Below are positions 2,288-45,200 of a DNA stretch of 64,000 bases, piece after piece; within the stretch, counting starts at the first letter, position 1, and each line of letters opens with the position of its first letter. The notes under the pieces were generated by a model, which saw nothing but the letters and a program-made list of their open reading frames with translations, was not told the DNA's origin and searched no databases. The stretch is from Candidatus Enterovibrio altilux. Lineage in GTDB: Bacteria > Pseudomonadota > Gammaproteobacteria > Enterobacterales > Vibrionaceae. The DNA lies in the NCBI RefSeq assembly GCF_002381345.1, contig NZ_CP020660.1, positions 1,240,001 to 1,304,000 of the forward strand. The letters are read 5' to 3'. The translations under genes and the position numbers were made by a program.

Positions 2288-2957
2288 TAACTTGGGGATT
2301 ATAATACCTTAAACTCAATATTCCTCCAAGTAGTTTTTGACTCGAAAGGTTAGTGTCTCTGATAGAAAACGTTTATGGTAATTATATTTCGTTTCCCAAT
2401 GCTGATTTGAATTCTATAATCTTGTTTCCCCAAAAGCCGCGTATTTCTTTGGTGAGATGAGTGGAACTGTTTGTTAAAAATGATTGCATGCGTATTTATA
2501 CCTACTACTAAATGCAACTTATACTAAACTCTATTTTTACTGTCAGTACAATGTTTTTTTTGCTTGTTATTCTATCTTACTATAGGCTTCCAAATGAGTC
2601 GCATCAATAGCTAAGTGCAGGATGGTTCATTTAATTTACGTCTTGAACACGATGTTAATTTTTTGGTGCGTTTGCTAATACACGCATGATAACAGCCGTG
2701 GAGCAAACTTGAAAGCAAAATTCATGAATCTAGGCAGGCTTCTCAACAGCATTAAGAGCAGAAGTTTAACTATGGGAATCTTCGCAATGGAGAAGTTACT
2801 AAATAAATGAAATCTCCCCCCCTATTGCTCTGTTTGGTTTGCTGCCATAGTTCATTATGTTGAAATTTTTTATCTGAGTTCGCATTAGGAAACAAAGTTA
2901 AAACTTAGCTGTTTAGAGCATAGATTAATGATTGTTCTCTCATTTAGGAAACAAAGA
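2288..2957. mobile_element. Mosaic of three IS5-family fragments
   Basis: A minus-oriented interior lacking its outer end runs to about 2850. It is joined to a plus-oriented 3' terminus (TCTGAGTTCGCATTAGGAAA, about 2872-2891), then to a minus-oriented 5' terminus ending TTTAGGAAACAAAGA at 2957. The last piece lies inside the thiQ reading frame. The mixed orientation implies IS-IS recombination, not a single insertion. Confidence 0.8.
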
Positions 2958-3613
2958 TCGTCCAAGGCTGAAATGTCGGTCTGATAAGCTACTTTACCTT
3001 TATCAATAAACAGTACAGTGTCAGCAATGGCTTTTGCGTCTTCAGGGTGATGCGTCACCATTAAAATGGTGGTGCTGTATTGCTGAGTTAGTGCCTTCAC
3101 TTGCTTGAGCATATTGTGACGTAGTGCTGGATCTAGGGCGGAGAAAGGTTCATCCAAAAGTAAAAGTGGGCGATAACGCACAAAACAACGAGCAAGTGCG
3201 ACTTGTTGCTTTTGCCCACCAGACAATTGACCCGGGAGACGATTCAGATAGGTTTCAATACCTATATTTTTTGCAGTTTGTTGTACGGTTAATTCTTGGT
3301 GGTCTGTTAGAGATAGAGTCGGATCAATACCGAGTGCAATATTATTAAAAGCAGTTAAGTGACTGAATAAGTTATGCTCTTGGAATAATATTGAGAGAGG
3401 ACGTTCGTGTGCTGGCATTCTAGTAAATTCTTGATCGTCAAACAATACCTTACCATCACTTGGTGTGAGGAGTCCGCACAACAGCGCAAGCAAGGTACTT
3501 TTACCAGCGCCGCTTGGCCCTAAAATTGCGGTGACCGAGCCTGATGAAAGTGAGAAAGAAAATGATAATGTTTCTGCCTGATATTGGTATGATAATGCAC
3601 TGACGTTAAGCAT
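2885..3613 (-). CDS. thiQ: Thiamine/TPP ABC transporter ATP-binding protein ThiQ, C-terminus replaced by IS sequence
   Basis: ATPase of the ThiBPQ importer for thiamine and its phosphates. Walker A GPSGAGKST, Q-loop FQEHNLFSHL, signature LSGGQKQQVALARC, Walker B LLLLDEPFSALDP and switch His MVTHHPEDA are all present. The frame begins inside the end of thiP (8 bp overlap), a typical thiPQ arrangement. From about residue 219 (DDL) onward the residues CFLNERTIINLCSKQL are translation of an IS 5' end, and the stop is supplied by a second IS terminus (TTTCCTAA). The catalytic core is complete and only the last dozen or so residues are foreign, so activity may remain. Without ThiB, however, the importer lacks its binding protein. 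Confidence 0.93.
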   Translation of the reverse strand: MLNVSALSYQYQAETLSFSFSLSSGSVTAILGPSGAGKSTLLALLCGLLTPSDGKVLFDDQEFTRMPAHERPLSILFQEHNLFSHLTAFNNIALGIDPTLSLTDHQELTVQQTAKNIGIETYLNRLPGQLSGGQKQQVALARCFVRYRPLLLLDEPFSALDPALRHNMLKQVKALTQQYSTTILMVTHHPEDAKAIADTVLFIDKGKVAYQTDISALDDLCFLNERTIINLCSKQLSFNFVS

Positions 3614-5198
3614 ATGATTTCCATGTGGTAATTTTTTCTATGAGTGCATAACAGCCTAAGCTAACAGTGAATAAGATCAGAGAGACTGCTGCTGCTGCAT
3701 CCATTTGATAACTGCCCATCAGGCGAAATAGATATAAAGGTAGTGTTTCGAAGTCTTTACTGCCAACTAAAGCGATAGCACCAAGATCGCCGGTAGAAAG
3801 TACAAAGCTGATGGCAAGTGCCCGTGCAATGGGGGCTCTCAATGCTTGCCATTCGATAAGTCTTAATTGATTGAGGCCTTTAAGCCCTAAGCTACAACAG
3901 AGACCATGGTATTGCTGAGCAAGTTGATACGCAGGTTGGCTCAATATTTTAACTACATAGGGCAATGCCATCATGGTGTTAACGGTAAGTATTAACCAAA
4001 AAGCAGAATTGAACACATCAATATAGCTGCGTAGCATCAGGAAAAGTCCAGTACTAAGCACGCTGCCTGGTACAACCAGCACAAGGGATGCTATGATTTC
4101 TATGCCGTTGGCGCGTATTGATTTACCCAACAGCCGCCAAGATCTACTGGTAAGTATTATAGTTGTGCCAAGTGATAATGCGCTTATGGCTGAACATGTT
4201 GCTAACATCAGTGAAGTTATAGTGGCATTCCAAATTGCTGATTGTTTAAGTATCGACAGAGCACTTGAGTTTACGCCACTTATAATAATCATGGCCAATG
4301 GGGGAATAACCAACAACACAGCTGCGCCAATCCAAAAATAATTCCACATTTTTTCACCAAAGCTATCTAACCTCGGAGGTAAGATGATATTAATATCTTT
4401 GCCCTGTATTGCAATGGGTTTGGTGGCGCATTGTACGATAAGATGAAAAGTACCACAAAGCAGTAATTGCCAGAGTGCTAAAAGTGCACCCGTTTGTAAA
4501 TCGAAATCAAAACGAATAGCGTGATAGATTGCAAGCTCAATCGTGGTTGCACTTGGACCGCCACCTAAAGCCATTACTGTTGCAAAGCTGGTAAAGCATA
4601 GAATAAAAACTAAACCAGTAGCATGGAATAACTGTAAACGCAAATATGGCCATTCTATTAATCTAAATTGGTGCCAGCCTTGTAGACCAAGTTGATACGC
4701 CAGTCGGCGTTGATCACATGGAATCTGATTCAAAGCTTGTACTAATAGTTGGGTGGCAAAAGGTAAGTTAAAGAAAACATGTGCAAGTAAAATTCCAGAT
4801 AACCCATAAATATTAATATTCCATTTTAAGCCAAATATTAGAAGTATATCGGAAAGTAAGCCACTTTTTCCATAGATAGAAAGGATGCCAAATACACCTA
4901 CAAGAACAGGTAACACCAAAGTCATAGAGAACAGTTTAAGTAGTAGTTCCTTACCTGCAAAGCGACGTCGAGACAAAGCATGAGCAACCGGTATAGCTAA
5001 ACCGACCGAGAGCAATGTTGAAAAAAAAGCCTGTTTTAAGCTGAATGCGGTGACATACTGAAGATAAGGATCTTGCCATAAGGATGCGATATTCAAAGAT
5101 CGCGATTGTGCGAGCAAAAAAAACAGAGCGGCGTTAATTAGCACCGCTATCAACACCGCCGAAACTATACCTGGCCATATTTTAGATGAGTTTAGCAT
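3606..5198 (-). CDS. thiP: Thiamine/TPP ABC transporter permease ThiP
   Basis: A 530-residue inner-membrane permease made of two homologous halves, as in the ThiP family. Each half carries several membrane spans and an EAA-like cytoplasmic loop (QLGLQGWHQFRLIEWP in the first half, SLGLKGLNQLRLIEWQ in the second). Its length is close to that of E. coli ThiP and no frame damage is visible. It overlaps thiQ by 8 bp and lies 30 bp downstream of the thiB remnant, consistent with an original thiBPQ operon. The operon promoter would have been upstream of thiB and is gone, so expression now depends on whatever the IS junction provides. Confidence 0.93.
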   Translation of the reverse strand: MLNSSKIWPGIVSAVLIAVLINAALFFLLAQSRSLNIASLWQDPYLQYVTAFSLKQAFFSTLLSVGLAIPVAHALSRRRFAGKELLLKLFSMTLVLPVLVGVFGILSIYGKSGLLSDILLIFGLKWNINIYGLSGILLAHVFFNLPFATQLLVQALNQIPCDQRRLAYQLGLQGWHQFRLIEWPYLRLQLFHATGLVFILCFTSFATVMALGGGPSATTIELAIYHAIRFDFDLQTGALLALWQLLLCGTFHLIVQCATKPIAIQGKDINIILPPRLDSFGEKMWNYFWIGAAVLLVIPPLAMIIISGVNSSALSILKQSAIWNATITSLMLATCSAISALSLGTTIILTSRSWRLLGKSIRANGIEIIASLVLVVPGSVLSTGLFLMLRSYIDVFNSAFWLILTVNTMMALPYVVKILSQPAYQLAQQYHGLCCSLGLKGLNQLRLIEWQALRAPIARALAISFVLSTGDLGAIALVGSKDFETLPLYLFRLMGSYQMDAAAAVSLILFTVSLGCYALIEKITTWKSYA

Positions 5199-5228
5199 AA
5201 AATTTGTTCACTAGGGATAATTGCCATT

Positions 5229-5832
5229 CTAGGATCTAATGGCGACTCTTATCTGCCATATTTTTGGTGTCCCTAGCCAGCTATTGACTTGCATAGATAA
5301 AATATTAAAATTATCAAATAATTTAATATTAGTAACTGGATACATCCAGTCCCTAGTTGAGATTAGGTCCTGGAATTCATCACTCAAAATAAATCGCATG
5401 TATTCACCAGCTAAAGTTTGGTTTGTTGAGTCTTTTACTTTGGTTGCCACTTCGACTTGCATGTAGTAGCCTGCATTGAAATTTGCGGTAGTCAAACTAA
5501 AGTTGTTTCCTGTGCCCAGATGATACGCTGGAGATGTTGTGTATGTTAGCACTATGTCTGCTTTTTTCAAAAAAATGCTGTAGCTTTGGACTAATTTTGG
5601 TTGCCGTAGCTGTTTTTCTCGTCAGTGATTCCCATGCATTGAATACGTTGTCACCAGAGACTGATTTCATCTACAACATCAGGCTTTATTCTAGTGTTAA
5701 CGTTCTCAGATCTTGATAAAGCATGAAAATATTATTAGACCTTTTACTAGTCCTCTTAAATTTTTTGGAAAATTTTGAAATTTATTTTGTCATAAAGAAA
5801 CGTAAAGTCATCGTAATCGTAACCGTAATCGT
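5229..5832 (-). pseudogene. thiB: thiB remnant (thiamine-binding periplasmic protein), 5' part lost, frameshifted
   Basis: The left part encodes the ThiB C-terminus (ADIVLTYTTSPAYHLGTGNN, YYMQVEVA, DWMYPVTN). Further upstream, in shifted frames, are GDNVFNAWESL, LYQDLRTLTLE (family: YQDPRTSTPGL) and YDYGYDYDDFTFLYDK (family: YDYGYFAFVYDK). At least three frameshifts separate these pieces. The gene stops dead at an IS terminus at 5833, so the signal peptide and first lobe are missing. It sits immediately upstream of thiP in the expected operon position. Confidence 0.88.
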
Positions 5833-6906
5833 AGTTTTGTTTTTTAATTTGCGTCAGAGAGCAAATTTCAACATGATTAGCTAGTAGACGATCACTTTAG
5901 TTTGAGATATACTTAATCTTATTAGTTTATTTAACGCTTTTATCATGGCGTAAGTTTCTCTAATCTGAGCATTGTGATCCCTGAGGTTTAAAGTCTCTCC
6001 GAGTAGCTTTTTGACTCGAACTGCTGCCGTCTATGATAGGGAATATGTATGGTATTAATACCTCGTTTCCTAATGCCAATTTGAACAGCATAACTTCTGG
6101 CAAATAACTGCTAAACTATGCGGATAATCTCATTATCCAAAAGTTATTTTTTTCTGAGTGGGATGAGTGGGACCGCTCGTTTAATCCGAATGGCTTTGTG
6201 ACATTGTCTGGTACTGTAAACGCTATCGCCTGATATGCATTGATTTTGCAGCGGTCTGTTGGAGTAAGTTAGGTAGCACTGCACTGTCAGTCACGTTTGA
6301 TTAAGTTAACTCAACAGCAATAATTGCATGTGTATTTATATCTATCGTTAAATGGTTCCTTCAGTCTTCGTCTTGAACGTAATGTTAACCGTTTGCTAAT
6401 GCATGAACAGTCAGGGTATGGGTATGACAACGACAGTTGAGCAAATTTATAGATGGCATTAATGAGTCCTTATAGGCCAGGTAACGGGATTGAAAATATG
6501 CGCTTAACTATGGGACCGTCGTAATGGCTCAGTCGTTAAATACATGAAGCCTCCCAAAATAACTCTGCTTAGTTTAATTCCATAGCTGAATGGCTGTTTC
6601 GTCAATCCAAAATGTTAGTGAGTCATGATTAATTAAAGCTTGATTATACTATTTTCTGTTGATTGTTTGGTTGCGAAGCTTATCCAAAGACGTTTTTTAT
6701 TAAAGACGGCAATGTTTTGAGTTAAGAAACCACTGGGGGTATTGAATCTAGGTGCTGAGAATACTCAGATTAGTGAAGCCTACGCCATGATAAAAGCGCC
6801 AAATAAGCTGACTGAGCTAAGTATGCCTAACATGAAAGCGATTGTATGATCATAAATCATGCTAGAATAGAACATGTTGTCTGAACTTGAATTAAGAAAT
6901 TAAATT
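5833..6906. mobile_element. IS5-family composite remnant with two 3'-type ends
   Basis: A minus-oriented copy starts with AGTTTTGTTTTTTAA at 5833 and runs to about 6690, where its 5' terminus is deleted. It is followed by a plus-oriented 3' end (GACGGCAATGTTTTGAG to TTAAGAAATTAAATT, 6906). Both outer ends are therefore of the transposase-3' type. The left end truncates thiB and the right end truncates recA. Confidence 0.8.
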
Positions 6907-7065
6907 TCCTTAATGCTACATCCAGAAACGAAGAACCTATAGATACAGTTTTAATGTTCATGGTGTGATCATTGCCAAAACACATGATCGATCCTTGATG
7001 AGTGGTTTTTGATTTAACCTATAATCACCACGTGTATTCTTTGTTAATTTGGTTTTTTAACAGCA
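6907..7065 (-). pseudogene. recA: recA remnant, truncated by IS after about 57 codons
   Basis: Reading leftward from about 7000 the translation gives GSIMCFGNDHTMNIKTVSIG then SSFLDVALR. This lines up with the RecA N-terminal segment of the form KGSIM RLGDN..MDVETISTGSLSLDIALG. Upstream DNA still resembles the LGQIEKQF coding stretch but with indels. The frame ends at the IS terminus at 6906, before the Walker A motif (GPESSGKT). It lies directly downstream of pncC on the same strand, the normal position of recA in Vibrionaceae, which supports the assignment. Confidence 0.85.
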
Positions 7066-7107
7066 GTAATATGTATTTTAATAATGTTTTATCAATGGTA
7101 ACTAAGC

Positions 7108-7125
7108 CTGCTTTTATTTACACAG
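7108..7125 (-). promoter_or_regulatory. Possible degenerate LexA box of recA
   Basis: The minus strand reads ACTGTGTAAATAAAAGCAG about 45 bp upstream of the recA remnant, where an SOS box is expected. LexA sites have CTG and CAG separated by 10 bases. Here the gap is 12, so if this was the site it has been damaged. The call is tentative. Confidence 0.3.
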
Positions 7126-7170
7126 TATTTAGTTCTATTTAAAATTTTTATTTTTTGTGTAGTATGGTCC

Positions 7171-7680
7171 TTATTTTTGACTCGTAAGATAAGATTGCAG
7201 ATGACATAAACTATGAATAATCGTATTAAGGCGGATTATATGTCTATCTCCATTAAATAAACACGTTTCTGTTACAACCTCTACTTTTGTTGCCCAGCCA
7301 AAACAGACTATACCAATAGGTTTCTCGTCATTCTTTCCCGTAGGTCCCGCTAAACCACTAACGGCCAGCGAATAATCAGCATTAGCAACTGCTAAAGCGC
7401 CATTTGCCATCTCAGCTACAACTTCTTCACTTACCGCGCCATGCGCATCAAGAGTTGCTTGTTGTACGCCAACTAATGTTTGTTTAGAATCATCGCTATA
7501 TGTCACGAAGGCACGATCAAACCAAGCAGAACTTCCCGCAACTTCTGTCAGGAAATAAGATATGCCACCACCGGTACAAGATTCTGCCGTCGTGACTGTT
7601 CCACCCGCGTCTTGTAATAATTCCCCAATTTGAGCTGCAAGTTTGATTAATTCTTCTATCATTTTTTCTTTGGACTTCAT
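7171..7680 (-). CDS. pncC: Nicotinamide-nucleotide amidase (CinA C-terminal domain protein)
   Basis: A 169-residue stand-alone CinA C-terminal domain that deamidates nicotinamide mononucleotide to nicotinate mononucleotide in NAD recycling. The conserved TVTTAESCTGGG, GSSAWFDRAFVTYS, HGAVSEEVV, SLAVSGLAGPTG, KPIGIVCFGW and FNGDRHIIRL segments are all present, and length is normal. The start codon at 7680 lies three bases from an IS terminus at 7684. The native leader is therefore gone, and any Shine-Dalgarno signal must come from the IS end (AGGAAAC, 15 bases upstream of the ATG). The internal ATG at 7662 is an alternative start. Confidence 0.92.
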   Translation of the reverse strand: MKSKEKMIEELIKLAAQIGELLQDAGGTVTTAESCTGGGISYFLTEVAGSSAWFDRAFVTYSDDSKQTLVGVQQATLDAHGAVSEEVVAEMANGALAVANADYSLAVSGLAGPTGKNDEKPIGIVCFGWATKVEVVTETCLFNGDRHIIRLNTIIHSLCHLQSYLTSQK

Positions 7681-7683
7681 TTA

Positions 7684-8840
7684 GGCTTTGTTTCCTAATT
7701 CTGTTGGCTTATTTAACGCTTGTATCGTGGCGCAGGTTAGCCAACTTGGGCGTTGTCATCTCTTAGGCTTAATGTTTCTCCGAGGAGTCTTTTGACTCAA
7801 AACGGCTTTGTTTGCTAAATTATTAACCTACGCTCTCAACAGCTAAGCTCACTTAAATATTTAAGTTTATGAAAAAGGTTCGTTACAAAATAACCAACTG
7901 GAAACAGTATAATCAAGCTTTAATTCATTGTGACTCATTAATATTTTGGATTGATGAAACAGCCATTCAGCTATGGAACCAAATTAAGTCGTGTAATCTG
8001 TGGGAGACCTCGTTTATTTAACGACTTAGCCATTACGATGGCTCTCATGGTTAAATGCGTCTTTTCAATACCACTGAGAGGTTAGCAAGGATTAACTAAT
8101 TCTATTTTCAGACTTGATCAACTGCCAATGTCATACCCTCATTGTTCATGTATTAGCAAGCAAGCTAAAACGGTTAATGTCATGCTCTAGACGAAGAATA
8201 AAGGGAATATCCAGCACTTAGCCATTGATTCTACGGGATTGAAAATTTATGATGAAGGAGAATGGACAGTAAAAAAGCATAGTACTCATGAAAAACGACG
8301 AGTATGGCGTAAGTTATATTTAGAGGCAGATATCAATACGTATGAAATCATTTTGCTGAGTTAAGTGCATCAAATGTGATTGATAGTGAAGTGCTACCTA
8401 ACTTATTCCAACAGACTCGCTGAAAAATCAATGAAATATCAGTTATGGCGCTTACGACACCAGATAATATTACGAACCCGTTTGTATTAAACGAGCGGTT
8501 CCACCCATGCTACCACGAAAAGCAGCAAATTTTTAAAAATGAAATTATCTTCGCAATTTAGCAGTCAGTTACTAACAGTTATGCGGTTCTAATTAGCATT
8601 AGAAAGGGAGGTATAGCTACCGTAAACGTTACCTATCAAAGGAGGCAATGATTTTGAATCACAAAACTACTAGGAAGGACATTAAGCTTAAGAAATCATA
8701 ATGCTCGGATTAGCGGAATTCACGGCATGGTAAAAGTGTTGAATAATATGACAGAGCTAGGTATAGCTAAAATAAAAGCATTGTTTAAATGTTCATCATG
8801 TTGGGATTTGCTATCTGAACTTGAATGAGGAAACAAAGTT
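7684..8840 (+). mobile_element. IS5-family copy preceded by an inverted 3'-end fragment, dead
   Basis: 7684-7803 is an inverted 3'-end fragment with internal deletions. A full plus-oriented copy follows from 7804 (GGCTTTGTTTGCTAA) to 8840 (GAGGAAACAAAG). Transposase signatures are visible in pieces (ALMVKCVF, HCSCISKQAK, IDSTGLKIYDEGEWTVKKH, NDFESQNY-type tail), separated by stops and frameshifts, including a stop inside the first quarter. Confidence 0.83.
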
Positions 8841-28169: not shown

Positions 28170-30985
28170 TCATTTACATTCTTTTTTTGAACAACTATAG
28201 AATTCTTCATATTTCCCTGTTCGTTTTCTTGTAGGTGACCCACATTTCTGACACTTATATGTTGAGGCAAAGAATTTTTTATAATTGCATCTTAATCTAC
28301 CATCTGATTTTTGTTTTAGAACCTTGTTACAAAAAAGACAAGTGTACTGGTATGGGTTTACGCAATCCTTGTTGATGCATTGTTTGTATCTTTTTGGCAA
28401 ACATTACATGTATTTGTTCCATTAGCTTTGCTATAATCGCATTCCTCGTTAATACAGTCATGAAAACTATTCTTTTTTACCCATAAGCATCCACATGAAA
28501 TACAACCATTATAAAGTTCGCCACAATATTGGCTTCTCGAGCATGCGTAAAAAATATTACCAGTTTTCTTGTTAGTTCTCTTGTTTAAATCACCCCCCCA
28601 GATTTAGAGCAGGATTGAGTGGCATAGAAAAGAGATTGAGCAATATAGCTCTTATCGACATATTATTTGTCGGTTAAGAGCTCATTAATGAAAGTAGAAG
28701 GGGAGTCATACTCAGTTAAGAAAAAGCATCTTTTTTTAGCCCTTGTAATAACTACATAAAACAACCTTCTTTTTTCTGCATGAGGATAATCATCATCGCT
28801 TAATGAAAATGCTTTCTCTATTCTAGTGCTGGGTATTAGTGATGGAATACCTGGGGAACTGTTTATTACTTCGGGTATTATTACATAATAAGCCTCAAGA
28901 CCTTTTGAGTTGTGTATGCTCATTTTACTCACAGCGTGGTTCGAAGAGAGTTCTTTGATTTCTCTCATTGATAAATAAAACCCTAACTTGTTTCTTTCAA
29001 GGATTAATACACTTGCCACTGGGGGGATCTTTGTTAATAGCTTTTTAATAGTATTCTTGTAATTCTCTTTATTAACACAAACTATTTCGACCGATGCCTC
29101 ATTTGTTACCTTGAGAGTTGAAATGTTTTTTTATACTGTAATGGGTTTTGTGTAATGAACTTTGAAGCGAGATCACAAAGGTTGTTATCAAATCTAAAAG
29201 TCTTATCAAGGGTAATTATGCTACAAGATCTAATAAGTGAATCAAAGTGAACAGTATAGGCTAAATCTGATCCCGCAAAATGGTTAATTGCCTGCCAGTC
29301 ATCGCCAACACAAAACAAACTTGACTCATGTGCTTGATCTCTTAGGTTTTGAATAAGTTCAGCTCTTTTAGGAGATATATCTTGAAACTTATCAACTAGA
29401 ATATACTTCCAAGAAGGAGAGAATTTTAAGTCAGAGACATACTTTAAACCCTTAATAATCATATCATCAAAGGTATATAGATCTCTTTCTCTGAGTGCGG
29501 TTTTGTATACTTCAAGGATTGTCCAGATGGTTTTGGTTATACTGAGGGCTTCATGTTCACGATATTCTCTCTGAAGTAATTCCAATACTTTTTCTCTGGC
29601 AACGTCATTGGATCTAATCTTGGAAATTGCATTTACAAACTCTTTACCAAGAGCGGTTCTTTTCTCTAGAAGATTGATATTATCAAAGATTTTGCTTTTA
29701 TCAATATCTTCAAATACTACTTCATTTTCGATTAGCTTTTGTTCTAAGTTACTTGTTAAATTACCTTTTTGATCTTCATAGTGAAAATTTTTAATTAACA
29801 CTGAACCTTGGGTCTCGTGAATATTTCTCTTTTGTTGAATGTTATGATTATATGCTTCTTTATTAACACCGGGGTGAGTGTTTTGGTTTCTATTGATACC
29901 AAAGTGTTCGAGAAAAATATGTTTGCTCTTAATATAGAAGTCGGGAGTATATTTAAATTCAATGTTAGCGCCTGTTATTTTTGAGTAGTCTGGTTCGTAT
30001 TCATAATCAACTCCTTTCAGGTAAAGAAAGTTTGCTATGGTTAGTTCTCCATAGCTTTTAATGAGATAACCTTTTAATGTACGTAGATTTTGTTTCTCTA
30101 TATATCTTTTATACTCATCACTAGACCTTATTTCATTGATTTCAGGCTCCGGATAATAGGTAGAGTTATAAGCATGTAGAAATGGAGTTTGAAAAGTAGG
30201 GTCTTTTAGAAGTAAGTCATTAATTATATCATCAATGATTTTAATATATAGTTTTTCATCTCCACAGTGTTTCGAGATGGAGTGTGGTCTATCATGAACC
30301 TTGTTGTAAATAAAATTCTCGATAGAGTGAAAGGTGCTAATATGACAAGCCTCAATATTAAGTATATCTCCCAGCTTTTCAATAAGCCTCTCTTTTAGCT
30401 CTCTAGCTGCATCGGCATTAAAAGCAAGCGTCCATTACTTCTTGTGGCTTTGCAAGGCCAGATTTCAGAAGATATCCCAAACGAGCAATCATTACTGATG
30501 TTTTGCCCAATCCAGCCCCTGCTAGCACTAATGTGTTTGCTTCATCACTAACATACGCTTCTCTTTGTTCTTGAGTCAAGGGATTGCTTTTAACTTTATC
30601 AAAGTAATTTTTGAACGTTAGAATCTGATTTGATTGGACTTTAAGGTTAAACTCTATCCGCTCACTTTCAAGAATATTATCAATAAGAGATTGATCTACT
30701 TGGGATCGAATGTGATGAAAAATTGTTGGAAATTTGATCTTTTCATTGTTTCTAATAAAACTGGCAGGGTTTTGATGAAAGTGCGTTCTTTTTAGAGCTT
30801 CTTTAATTTCATTCTTTAAATTGAGAGTATCAACGAGCTTTTCTATGCAGCTATTTAGTGATGCTTTTCGAAAGAATATTTTTTTTCGTGAAATAAACTC
30901 GTTTTTACTTCAACCTCTTTAAAAAACAGAAGTTTACGATTTATTGAGAATATGTCTTCACTTAATGATATTATAGATTATGATA
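28170..30985 (-). pseudogene. HelD-like UvrD-family helicase with inserted PD-(D/E)XK-like domain and C-terminal zinc ribbons, multiply broken
   Basis: Pieces read right to left: an N-terminal region (NRKLLFFKEVEVKTSLF, then SCIEKLVDTLNLKNEIK). Walker A follows in TLVLAGAGLGKTSVM (30.5 kb). An insertion, SYGELTIANFLYLKGVDYEY ... YTPDFYI ... IFLEHFGI, resembles a restriction-type nuclease. Next comes Walker B ILVDKFQDISPKRAEL (Glu to Lys), then VGDDWQAINHFAG, TFRFDNNLCDLASKFI and MSIHNSKGLEAYYVII, with RRLFYVVITRAKKR at motif VI. Last is a Cys-rich tail (CSRSQYC, CISCGC, CLFCNK, YKCQKCGSPT). Frameshifts lie near 30885, 30430, 29125, 28600 (in a G run) and 28390, with a nonsense codon near 28662. 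No start codon remains. Confidence 0.82.
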
Positions 30986-43470: not shown

Positions 43471-44145
43471 ATGACAATACCAACACATAAATTACAGCGT
43501 CGCATAGCTTATGAATTTCGTAATATTATGCTACTAAGTCTTGCTTTAACTCATCGAAGTGCAAGTGGTCACCATAATGAACGTTTAGAGTTTTTGGGGG
43601 ACTCTATTTTGAGCTTCGTTGTGGCTGATAATCTTTACCATCGTTTCCCGAACGTTGATGAAGGTGACATGAGTCGTATGCGTGCAACCTTAGTTCGTGG
43701 TAATACTTTAGCTGAGCTAGGTCGAGAATTTAAGCTAGGTAATGTTCTGAAATTAGGGCAAGGTGAATTAAAAAGCGGGGGCTCTAGTCGTAATTCTATT
43801 CTTGCTGATGCAGTTGAAGCGATCATTGGCGCTATCTATCTTGACAGTGATCTGGAAACAGTCCGTGAAACTATCCTGGGTTGGTACAAAGAACGTCTAG
43901 AGACCATTATGCCGGGTACTAATCAGAAAGATCCAAAAACACTATTGCAGGAATGCCTTCAAGGGCGGCATAAGCCATTACCCGTCTATGATATAACTCA
44001 AGTGGATGGAGAAGCGCACAACCAGCGATTTACTGTTGAATGTAGAATCGCAGGTCTGGAACGCCCTGTCGTAGGTAAAGGCAGCAATCGTCGTAAAGCA
44101 GAACAAGAGGCTGCAGAACGAGCATTAGAGAGGCTGGACTCATGA
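43471..44145 (+). CDS. rnc: Ribonuclease III
   Basis: A 224-residue double-strand RNA endonuclease for rRNA processing and antisense-mediated decay. The signature [18 protein letters not shown] and the second acidic site ([15 protein letters not shown]) are intact. The C-terminal dsRNA-binding domain ([12 protein letters not shown] ... [18 protein letters not shown]) is also intact. The stop codon overlaps the era start (ATGA), giving translational coupling. Full length for the family. Confidence 0.96.
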
Positions 44146-45056
44146 CAGACTCGTATCAAATTCACCACAGTGGTTTCATTTCTATAGTTGGTCGCCCTAA
44201 CGTGGGTAAGTCAACGCTCCTTAACCGTTTGGTTGGGCAGAAACTATCTATTACCTCGCGTAAACCTCAAACCACTCGCCACCGCATTATGGGTGTTGAT
44301 ACTCATGATAGTTATCAGGCGATGTACGTAGACACTCCAGGACTTCACATTGAAAAAAAACGCACGATTAATCGCTTAATGAACCGTACTGCGACAAGTG
44401 CATTGACAGGCGTTGAGCTGGTACTGTTCTTAGTGGACGGAACTCAGTGGACCGAAGATGATCAAATGGTGCTTAATAAGTTGAAGAAGTCAGGCCTTCC
44501 AACGGTTCTGTTAGTCAACAAAGTTGACAACATTCGTGAAAAAGGGAAGTTATTTCCACATTTACAGGCGTTGAGTGAGAAAATGGATTTCATCGATATT
44601 GTGCCTGTTTCAGCAAAAAAAGGCACCAATGTCGACGTAATTAAAAAGTTGGTACGTGATTCGCTACCAGAAGGTGAGTGGTATTTCCCGAAGGAGTATG
44701 TTACTGACCGTTCACAGCGTTTTATGGCGTCTGAAATTATTCGTGAAAAATTAATGCGTTTTTTGGGTGATGAATTGCCATATGCTGTAACCGTAGAAAT
44801 TGAGCGTTTTGATTACAATTCAGATACTAATGGCTTTAAAATTAATGGATTGATTTTGGTTGAACGCAATGGACAAAAACGTATGATTATTGGCAAAGGT
44901 GGCGATAAAATTAAAATTATTGGTCGTGAAGCTCGCTTAGACATGGAAACAATGTTTGAACGTAAAGTTTATCTTGAATTGTGGATTAAAGTGAAATCTG
45001 GTTGGGCAGATGACGTATGTGCCTTGCGCGGTCTTGGCTATATTGATGATCTTTGA
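44142..45056 (+). CDS. era: GTPase Era
   Basis: A 304-residue GTPase that binds the 3' end of 16S rRNA during 30S assembly. G1 [10 protein letters not shown]2 region [14 protein letters not shown]3 DTPGLH, G4 NKVD and G5 SAKKGTNV are present. The C-terminal KH domain includes [20 protein letters not shown]. It overlaps rnc by 4 bp. It is complete, unlike recO, which normally follows it and is here only a stub. Confidence 0.96.
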
Positions 45057-45087
45057 TCGAAGATATGCGAAATAAGACAGAAGCAAC

Positions 45088-45200
45088 ATGGAAGATATGC
45101 AAAGTTATTGTGTTTTGTACTCGTATTTTTACAGTAAAATCAACTTTATTGTGGGTGCTCTTAGTGAAAATCATGGATAAGTTAGCTTGATGACCGAAGG
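45088..45200 (+). pseudogene. recO: recO remnant, first ~32 codons then IS
   Basis: From the ATG at 45088 the translation is MEDMQSYCVLYSYFYSKINF then IVGALSENHG, a stop, and VS. It aligns with the RecO start (ME.[31 protein letters not shown] pattern). An IS terminus follows at 45201. RecO loads RecA on SSB-coated DNA in the RecFOR pathway. The location 31 bp after era is the standard recO position. Confidence 0.82.

What the first reader, a model, noticed from the sequence alone, without database searches (positions are those of the whole stretch)
6907..7125. recA reduced to a 5' stub by an IS boundary
Downstream of pncC, where vibrios carry recA, only about 57 degraded codons remain (GSIM...NIKTVSIG..LDVAL). 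They end at an IS terminus before Walker A, with a damaged LexA-like box upstream. Together with the recO stub at 45 kb this suggests loss of homologous recombination and the SOS response in a repeat-rich genome. That would also freeze the IS-IS rearrangements already present.
Basis: partly seen in the sequence, partly recalled or inferred. Interest (0 to 1): 0.75.

Follow-up and report, generated by a model that had tools for sequence, protein, structure and literature searches.

The report
IS-truncated recA remnant in anglerfish symbiont
The glowing bacterium of a deep-sea anglerfish has lost its main DNA-recombination gene, recA, of which only a broken front piece is left beside a dead transposon, yet it still carries the whole RecBCD enzyme that normally works with RecA.

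Summary
Confirmed, with corrections. Window 6907-7048 (-) is the 5' end of recA (to about codon 50), start codon lost and frame broken. The recA leader with a damaged LexA box (about 7108-7125) and pncC follow. Homology ends at a decayed IS5-family terminus (about 6906), before Walker A. Alignment score 124.8; the best of 500 shuffles is 35.

Size and N50 match Ca. Enterovibrio luxaltus CC26. No RecA-family match exists in this genome or in 2.6-Mb congener G012; 58 of 61 genomes were over the cut-off. LexA, RuvB and RecO are broken or not found in both, and no RecF-, RecN- or RecG-like match was found. Loss of RecA-dependent recombination and SOS is well supported.

RecB, RecC and RecD are full-length in both, tested catalytic residues kept, as in RecA-less Buchnera. 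RecBCD is probably kept for RecA-independent fork or end processing (inference).

The "freeze" is not shown: 13 IS copies of the window share no exact run of 30 bp. Bulk repair-gene loss in this genome was published in 2018: a new member of a known kind.

The parts
6907..7048 (-). remnant of recA codons 1 to about 50, start codon lost, several frame breaks, ends before Walker A
7049..7170 (-). remnant of the pncC-recA intergenic leader
   Evidence: continuous alignment to L007
7108..7125 (-). damaged LexA (SOS) box; intact CTGT-N8-ACAG in 17 of 17 relatives examined, none here
7171..7680 (-). pncC (169-aa ORF), an IS remnant starting at 7694 on its 5' side
6684..6906 (+). 3' part of a decayed IS5-family element (consensus positions 805 to about 1022) that abuts the recA remnant
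   Evidence: end placed by reading the sequence
5836..6691 (-). decayed IS5-family element, inverted to the previous piece, internal deletion
7815..8838 (+). near full-length decayed IS5-family element upstream of pncC, where mutS lies in relatives
44142..45056 (+). era, intact neighbour of recO
45071..45200 (+). recO 5' stub (about 42 codons) ending where an IS remnant starts (45204)

Best explanation
The feature is a dead recA. In Ca. Enterovibrio luxaltus the recA-recX part of the ancestral mutS<- ->pncC->recA->recX->alaS locus has been removed between IS5-family elements. It leaves pncC, the recA leader and about 50 ruined codons. The remnant makes no RecA and no other copy was found in the assembly, so RecA-driven strand exchange and LexA cleavage should be impossible. 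LexA, RecO and RuvB are broken, and no RecF, RecN or RecG was found. RecBCD is kept and most likely works as a RecA-independent helicase-nuclease that clears broken ends and reversed forks. Shown: the remnant, its IS border, the absences in the assembly, and the open RecBCD genes. Inferred: loss of function in the cell, the role of RecBCD, and that an IS event caused the loss rather than followed it.
For: Alignment well above chance and single tblastn hit. PF00154 absent in G000 and G012 but over cut-off in 58 of 61 genomes. pncC and alaS still present; no recA or recX match between them beyond the stub. Decay without protein selection: 10 of 49 first- and second-position sites that are invariant in 17 relatives are changed, against 0-1 in leave-one-out controls. 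IS border. SOS box intact in 17 of 17 relatives examined and gone here. lexA in two frames with a stop, ruvB in four pieces, recO stub. No RecF-, RecN- or RecG-like match. RecB, RecC and RecD stop-to-stop frames of 1195, 1176 and 692 codons.
Against: The recA remnant is short, so its decay estimate has a wide interval (10-34%). G053 also lacks a RecA match over cut-off, but it is a 450-contig, 91%-complete draft. The LexA model still scores over its cut-off in G000, on a frame with a stop, and RuvA is a full-length match, so parts of the system are only recently or not yet lost. The 2018 paper counts 2 repair and recombination genes in CC26, whereas I find at least RecB, RecC, RecD, MutS and UvrD open; its category or criteria may differ. 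RuvC, RecR, RecJ, RecQ, RadA, UvrABC and Redbeta/Erf annealases were not searched. There are no expression or phenotype data here.
Confidence: 0.92

Rival explanations
1. The genome still recombines through an undetected recombinase: RecA on unassembled DNA, or a phage-type annealase.
For: The assembly has 4 contigs and some DNA may be missing; only RecT was tested among annealases.
Against: Completeness 99.96%; RecA also missing in the separate assembly G012; RecT matched in 0 of 4 genomes, while the control rang in 6 of 14.
Confidence: 0.05
2. RecA was lost once in a common ancestor of the two anglerfish symbionts, and the two loci then eroded differently.
For: Both lack RecA, and in both LexA and RuvB are broken or not found and RecF, RecN and RecG not found; the 2018 paper reports the two as sisters with high support (passage); the G012 gap reaches beyond the G000 breakpoint, as nested erosion would give.
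Against: The borders differ: in G012 the similarity stops 8 bp after pncC. recO is IS-truncated in G000 but full-length with stops in G012. The 2018 paper infers separate IS expansions. My 618-residue tree cannot decide sisterhood (AU 0.54 against 0.46).
Confidence: 0.45
3. recA was first killed by small lesions and the IS junction is a later, passive event.
For: The remnant has lost its ATG and carries frame breaks besides the truncation. Its decay, 20% at first and second positions (CI 10-34%), is no lower than the mean 18% divergence of IS pieces from their consensus.
Against: Those lesions could equally have accumulated after truncation; the estimates overlap.
Confidence: 0.35

Closest known systems
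recA loss in vesicomyid clam symbionts (Ca. Vesicomyosocius okutanii, Ca. Ruthia magnifica; PMC3202245, abstract and part 1 of the Discussion read)
   Same: recA present only as a remnant or mostly deleted in a reduced deep-sea symbiont genome; the authors infer independent losses in different lineages.
   Different: Those are intracellular symbionts with 1.02 and 1.16 Mb genomes whose repeats over 200 bp are described as depleted. Here a 2.1-Mb extracellular symbiont is still full of 1-kb, though decayed, IS repeats.
Buchnera (lacks RecA, keeps RecBCD; PMC5698493 and PMC1193525, passages read)
   Same: RecBCD kept without RecA. RuvAB is absent from the RecA-less genomes of PMC1193525; here RuvB is broken (G000) or not found (G012).
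   Different: Buchnera is an intracellular, vertically inherited insect symbiont (recalled). The anglerfish symbiont is extracellular and, according to PMC6773444 (title, start of abstract and passages), acquired from the environment.
Ca. Enterovibrio luxaltus and escacola genome report (PMC6020299, passages read)
   Same: Same genome: 2,143,356 bp, N50 1,604,691. It reports DNA repair and recombination genes falling from 12 to 2 and 3, 672 IS5 transposases and no complete transposase gene in CC26.
   Different: recA, lexA and SOS have no occurrence in its main text; its supplements were not readable here.

Membership tests
recA gene (PF00154), as a pseudogene | homology to recA in the conserved place downstream of pncC | tested here: met
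recA gene (PF00154), as a working gene | open frame with Walker A and the core ATPase domain | tested here: not met
   ends at about codon 50, frame broken; PF00154 silent in the genome
SOS regulon | intact LexA repressor | tested here: not met
   G000 lexA scores over cut-off but has a TAG and a frame break; G012 no match over cut-off
SOS regulon | LexA box before recA | tested here: not met
RecBCD pathway of homologous recombination | RecB, RecC and RecD full length with motor and nuclease residues | tested here: met
   residue numbers recalled
RecBCD pathway of homologous recombination | RecA to load on the Chi-processed strand | tested here: not met
RecBCD pathway of homologous recombination | Chi-contact residues of RecC | tested here: inconclusive
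   11 positions looked at; of 9 identical in E. coli and G004, 7 kept in each symbiont; R186 changed in both. R142 of the published list was not looked at, and E. coli position 137 reads Q where the paper prints D137
RecFOR pathway | RecF and RecO present | tested here: not met
   RecR not tested
Holliday-junction branch migration (RuvAB, RecG) | RuvB or RecG intact | tested here: not met
   RuvA itself is a full-length match in G000; RuvC not tested

The most novel reading that the evidence does not exclude
In both anglerfish symbionts RecBCD has become a stand-alone, RecA-uncoupled enzyme, kept by selection for rescuing stalled forks in the cold deep sea. Its Chi response is drifting: RecC R186, a Chi-recognition residue kept in E. 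coli and in the free-living relative G004, is His in one symbiont and Ser in the other. This would be a natural separation of the end-processing and recombination roles of RecBCD in an extracellular, environmentally acquired bacterium.
Probability: 0.3. Interest if true: 0.6.

Novelty: new member of a known kind. Interest (0 to 1): 0.42.

Why it matters
RecA loss is usually told as a trait of intracellular, vertically inherited symbionts. One paper contrasts intact repair genes in an extracellular symbiont with the losses seen in vertically transmitted ones (PMC7807488, passage). Here RecA and SOS are gone in an extracellular symbiont reported to be acquired from the environment, which suggests that neither intracellular life nor vertical inheritance is needed for the loss. 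The kept RecBCD gives a natural case for asking what RecBCD does without RecA.

Tried and rejected
Rejected: the stub as chance similarity; RecA hidden elsewhere in the assembly; recA or recX fragments in the G012 gap or in the 16 kb of G000 just before the window (for the gap, local scores 25.5 and 24.4 against a maximum of 31.1 in 30 shuffles; tblastn only E 0.17-0.91); RecT as a substitute.

Led nowhere: a tree from mutS, pncC and alaS ends to decide one loss or two (19 genomes, some lacking one gene; one search was a first run without mutS because of my slicing error). dN/dS of RecBCD was saturated at synonymous sites (pS 0.75-0.84, pN 0.15-0.22), so the selection claim rests on open frames and conserved residues. 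The RecC Chi-contact comparison is not distinguishable from background (7 of 9 kept, against 84-86% of 506 conserved RecC sites). The PF13737 search scored 150 of 747 candidates, so the rest were not examined. One paper gave nothing on the terms sought. Two of the three papers listed for anglerfish, Enterovibrio and recA were not opened.

Full report
What the window is. The window is G000:C1:1240001-1304000 of a genome of 2,143,356 bases in 4 contigs. Contig 1 is 1,604,691 bases long. Both numbers equal the size and N50 printed for Ca. Enterovibrio luxaltus CC26, the light-organ symbiont of Cryptopsaras couesii (PMC6020299, passages read). The NCBI name is probably Ca. Enterovibrio altilux (the link between the two names is my inference). 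G012, 2.6 Mb and 40 contigs (rounded values), fits the second symbiont of that paper, MJ02 (2,645,619 bp, 39 contigs); that identity too is inferred.

The observation. In free-living relatives the order is mutS<- ->pncC->recA->recX->alaS (read from ORFs). In the window pncC (7171-7680, -) is followed by DNA that aligns end to end to the G004 leader and recA 5' end as far as window 6912. The part beyond pncC scores 124.8. The best of 500 shuffles is 35. Of 796 window stretches, both strands counted, the top three overlap this locus and the next is 30.6. recA codon 1 corresponds to window 7048 and the similarity stops at about codon 50, before Walker A. The ATG is lost and several gaps break the frame. 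blastn of window 6800-7300, which includes the pncC end, against the 30 loci gave hits at E up to 1 in 15 of 30, and at E up to 1e-5 in 13 of 30, best 1e-34. A LexA box CTGT-N8-ACAG lies 59-87 bp before recA in 17 of 17 relatives examined (same genus or family; 12 loci of other families and one near twin left out) and nowhere in window 6900-7200.

The border. The stretch below 6907 belongs to decayed copies of one IS. The consensus from the window and six other loci of this genome is 1022 bp; it maps 79 pieces, 43 of them in the window. The piece next to recA, 6684-6899, matches consensus 805-1017, so by reading the element ends near 6906. One window transposase fragment matches PF13737, DDE_Tnp_1_5, which fits the IS5 label of the paper. 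Among the 150 copies scored of 747 candidates genome-wide, no open frame exceeds 200 aa, in line with the paper's 'complete transposase genes: 0'. pncC is hemmed in on its other side too: an IS remnant begins at 7694, and mutS, its divergent neighbour in relatives, now lies 0.32 Mb away as an intact frame.

Absence of recA. PF00154 finds nothing in G000 and nothing in G012; of 61 genomes, G000 included, 59 have a match and 58 are over the cut-off. The third genome under the cut-off, G053, is a 450-contig, 91%-complete draft with one weak match. tblastn with the G004 RecA finds in G000 only the stub, and in G012 nothing at E up to 10. In G012 the similarity stops 8 bp after the pncC stop and no recA or recX remnant is visible in the 4.6 kb up to alaS.

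The rest of recombination and SOS, tested in G000, G012, free-living G004 and same-family G018. LexA: in G000 the model scores over its cut-off, but with a TAG and a frame break; G012 has nothing over cut-off; G004 and G018 have open frames. RecF and RecN: strong matches with frames of RecF and RecN size only in G004 and G018; the SMC_N hits in G000 and G012, some over the cut-off when neighbours in the frame are added, look like ABC ATPases, a reading from score and frame length. RuvB: four pieces in different frames in G000, with RuvA still a full-length match. In G012 the best RuvB_N match is over the cut-off (48.8 bits) but sits in a 448-aa frame that mirrors a second, non-RuvB protein of G004 (449 aa, 53.9 bits); the true RuvB of G004 and G018 scores 278 and 277 bits. 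RecG: over cut-off in G004 and G018 only; the best hits in the symbionts are in 1157- and 1167-aa frames, probably Mfd. RecO: TIGR00613 has no match in G000, where the stub (45071-45200) was found with the G004 protein; in G012 the gene is full-length but with stops. RecT: 0 of 4. RecR, RecJ, RecQ, RuvC, RadA, UvrABC, MutL and DinB were not tested.

What is kept. RecC (1176-codon stop-to-stop frame), RecB (1195) and RecD (692) are full-length in G000 at 72-74% identity to G004, and RecBCD is likewise open in G012 at 70-74%. In G000 recD now lies about 83 kb from recBC. Walker A of RecB and RecD and the RecB nuclease residues looked at (numbers recalled) are kept in both. UvrD- and Rep-like frames are present in G000; in G012 a UvrD-like frame but no Rep-like match. 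MutS is open in both. Over some 3,000 codons RecBCD has no stop, while 133 of the 150 IS copies scored carry at least one stop within at most 112 positions (my count). This is best explained by selection; dN/dS itself was saturated.

Age. In the ungapped recA block, 10 of 49 first- and second-position sites invariant in 17 relatives have changed (20%, CI 10-34%), against 0-1 in leave-one-out controls. 47 IS pieces of 200 bp or more average 82% identity to their consensus. So recA has been dead for about as long as the typical IS copy has been decaying. This is a rough comparison: different sites, small numbers, and a consensus that only approximates the founder.

On freezing. 13 of the longer IS stretches of the window, chosen by me, give 78 pairs; their longest shared exact run has median 17 and maximum 28 bp, none of 30 or more. 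Copies outside the window were not compared. E. coli needs an identical run of roughly 25 bp or more for efficient RecA-dependent exchange (recalled). So divergence alone would nearly stop IS-IS exchange now. Earlier rearrangements (mutS, alaS and recD moved) may date from when copies were alike; their order relative to recA loss is open.

Mechanism proposed. Without RecA, RecBCD cannot start strand exchange. It can still unwind and degrade broken ends and reversed forks. In Antarctic Pseudomonas syringae Lz4W, RecBCD is essential at low temperature and the authors propose fork rescue 'in a recA-independent manner' (PMC5959072, passages). They also report that there the motor, not the nuclease, is needed. 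A cold deep-sea symbiont may keep RecBCD for this; this is inference. RecC R186, in that paper's list of Chi-recognition residues, is His in G000 and Ser in G012. Over all positions looked at, Chi contacts are kept about as often as the background (7 of 9 in each, against 84-86%), so this is a lead only.

One loss or two. Different borders at recA and different fates of recO favour separate events; nested erosion after one ancestral loss is not excluded. My tree does not resolve whether the two are sisters (AU 0.54 and 0.46). The 2018 paper says they are sisters and suggests separate IS expansions.

What is in print. [quoted passage not shown] I find at least five such genes open in CC26 (RecB, RecC, RecD, MutS, UvrD), so its category or criteria must differ from mine. 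RecA, LexA and SOS do not occur in its main text. The one 'reca' hit in the eLife 2019 paper is the word 'Recalcitrant' in a reference. Of the 5 papers found for the symbiont names, I looked for recA in these two only. Supplements were not readable, so recA may be listed there. RecA loss as such is well known in Buchnera, Blochmannia and clam symbionts.

Verdict. The finding is real, and the genome-wide check it asked for supports loss of RecA and SOS. It fits a known pattern of symbiont genome decay. Its special points are the extracellular, environmentally acquired host association (PMC6773444) and the intact RecBCD.

Noticed in passing
window 28663-30579 (-): A UvrD-like helicase gene in pieces with a stop; in free-living G004 a match of the same family sits in a 724-aa frame. 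A further decayed helicase.
   Followed up: partly
G000:C1 recBC about 1416952-1424197 (-), recD about 1507019-1509094 (+): recD has been moved about 83 kb from recBC while all three stay open; in G004 and G012 they lie together.
   Followed up: partly
RecC in L079 and L081, E. coli position 186: A Chi-recognition arginine, the same in E. coli and G004, is replaced by His in G000 and by Ser in G012.
   Followed up: partly
window 2885-5570 (-): ABC transporter pair resembling thiamine ThiQ and ThiP next to a 113-aa piece resembling the C-terminal end of the binding protein ThiB, which looks truncated (names from memory, ORFs).
   Followed up: no
G053: A draft genome of the same order (4.0 Mb, 450 contigs, 91% complete) with no RecA match over cut-off; probably incompleteness, not checked.
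   Followed up: no
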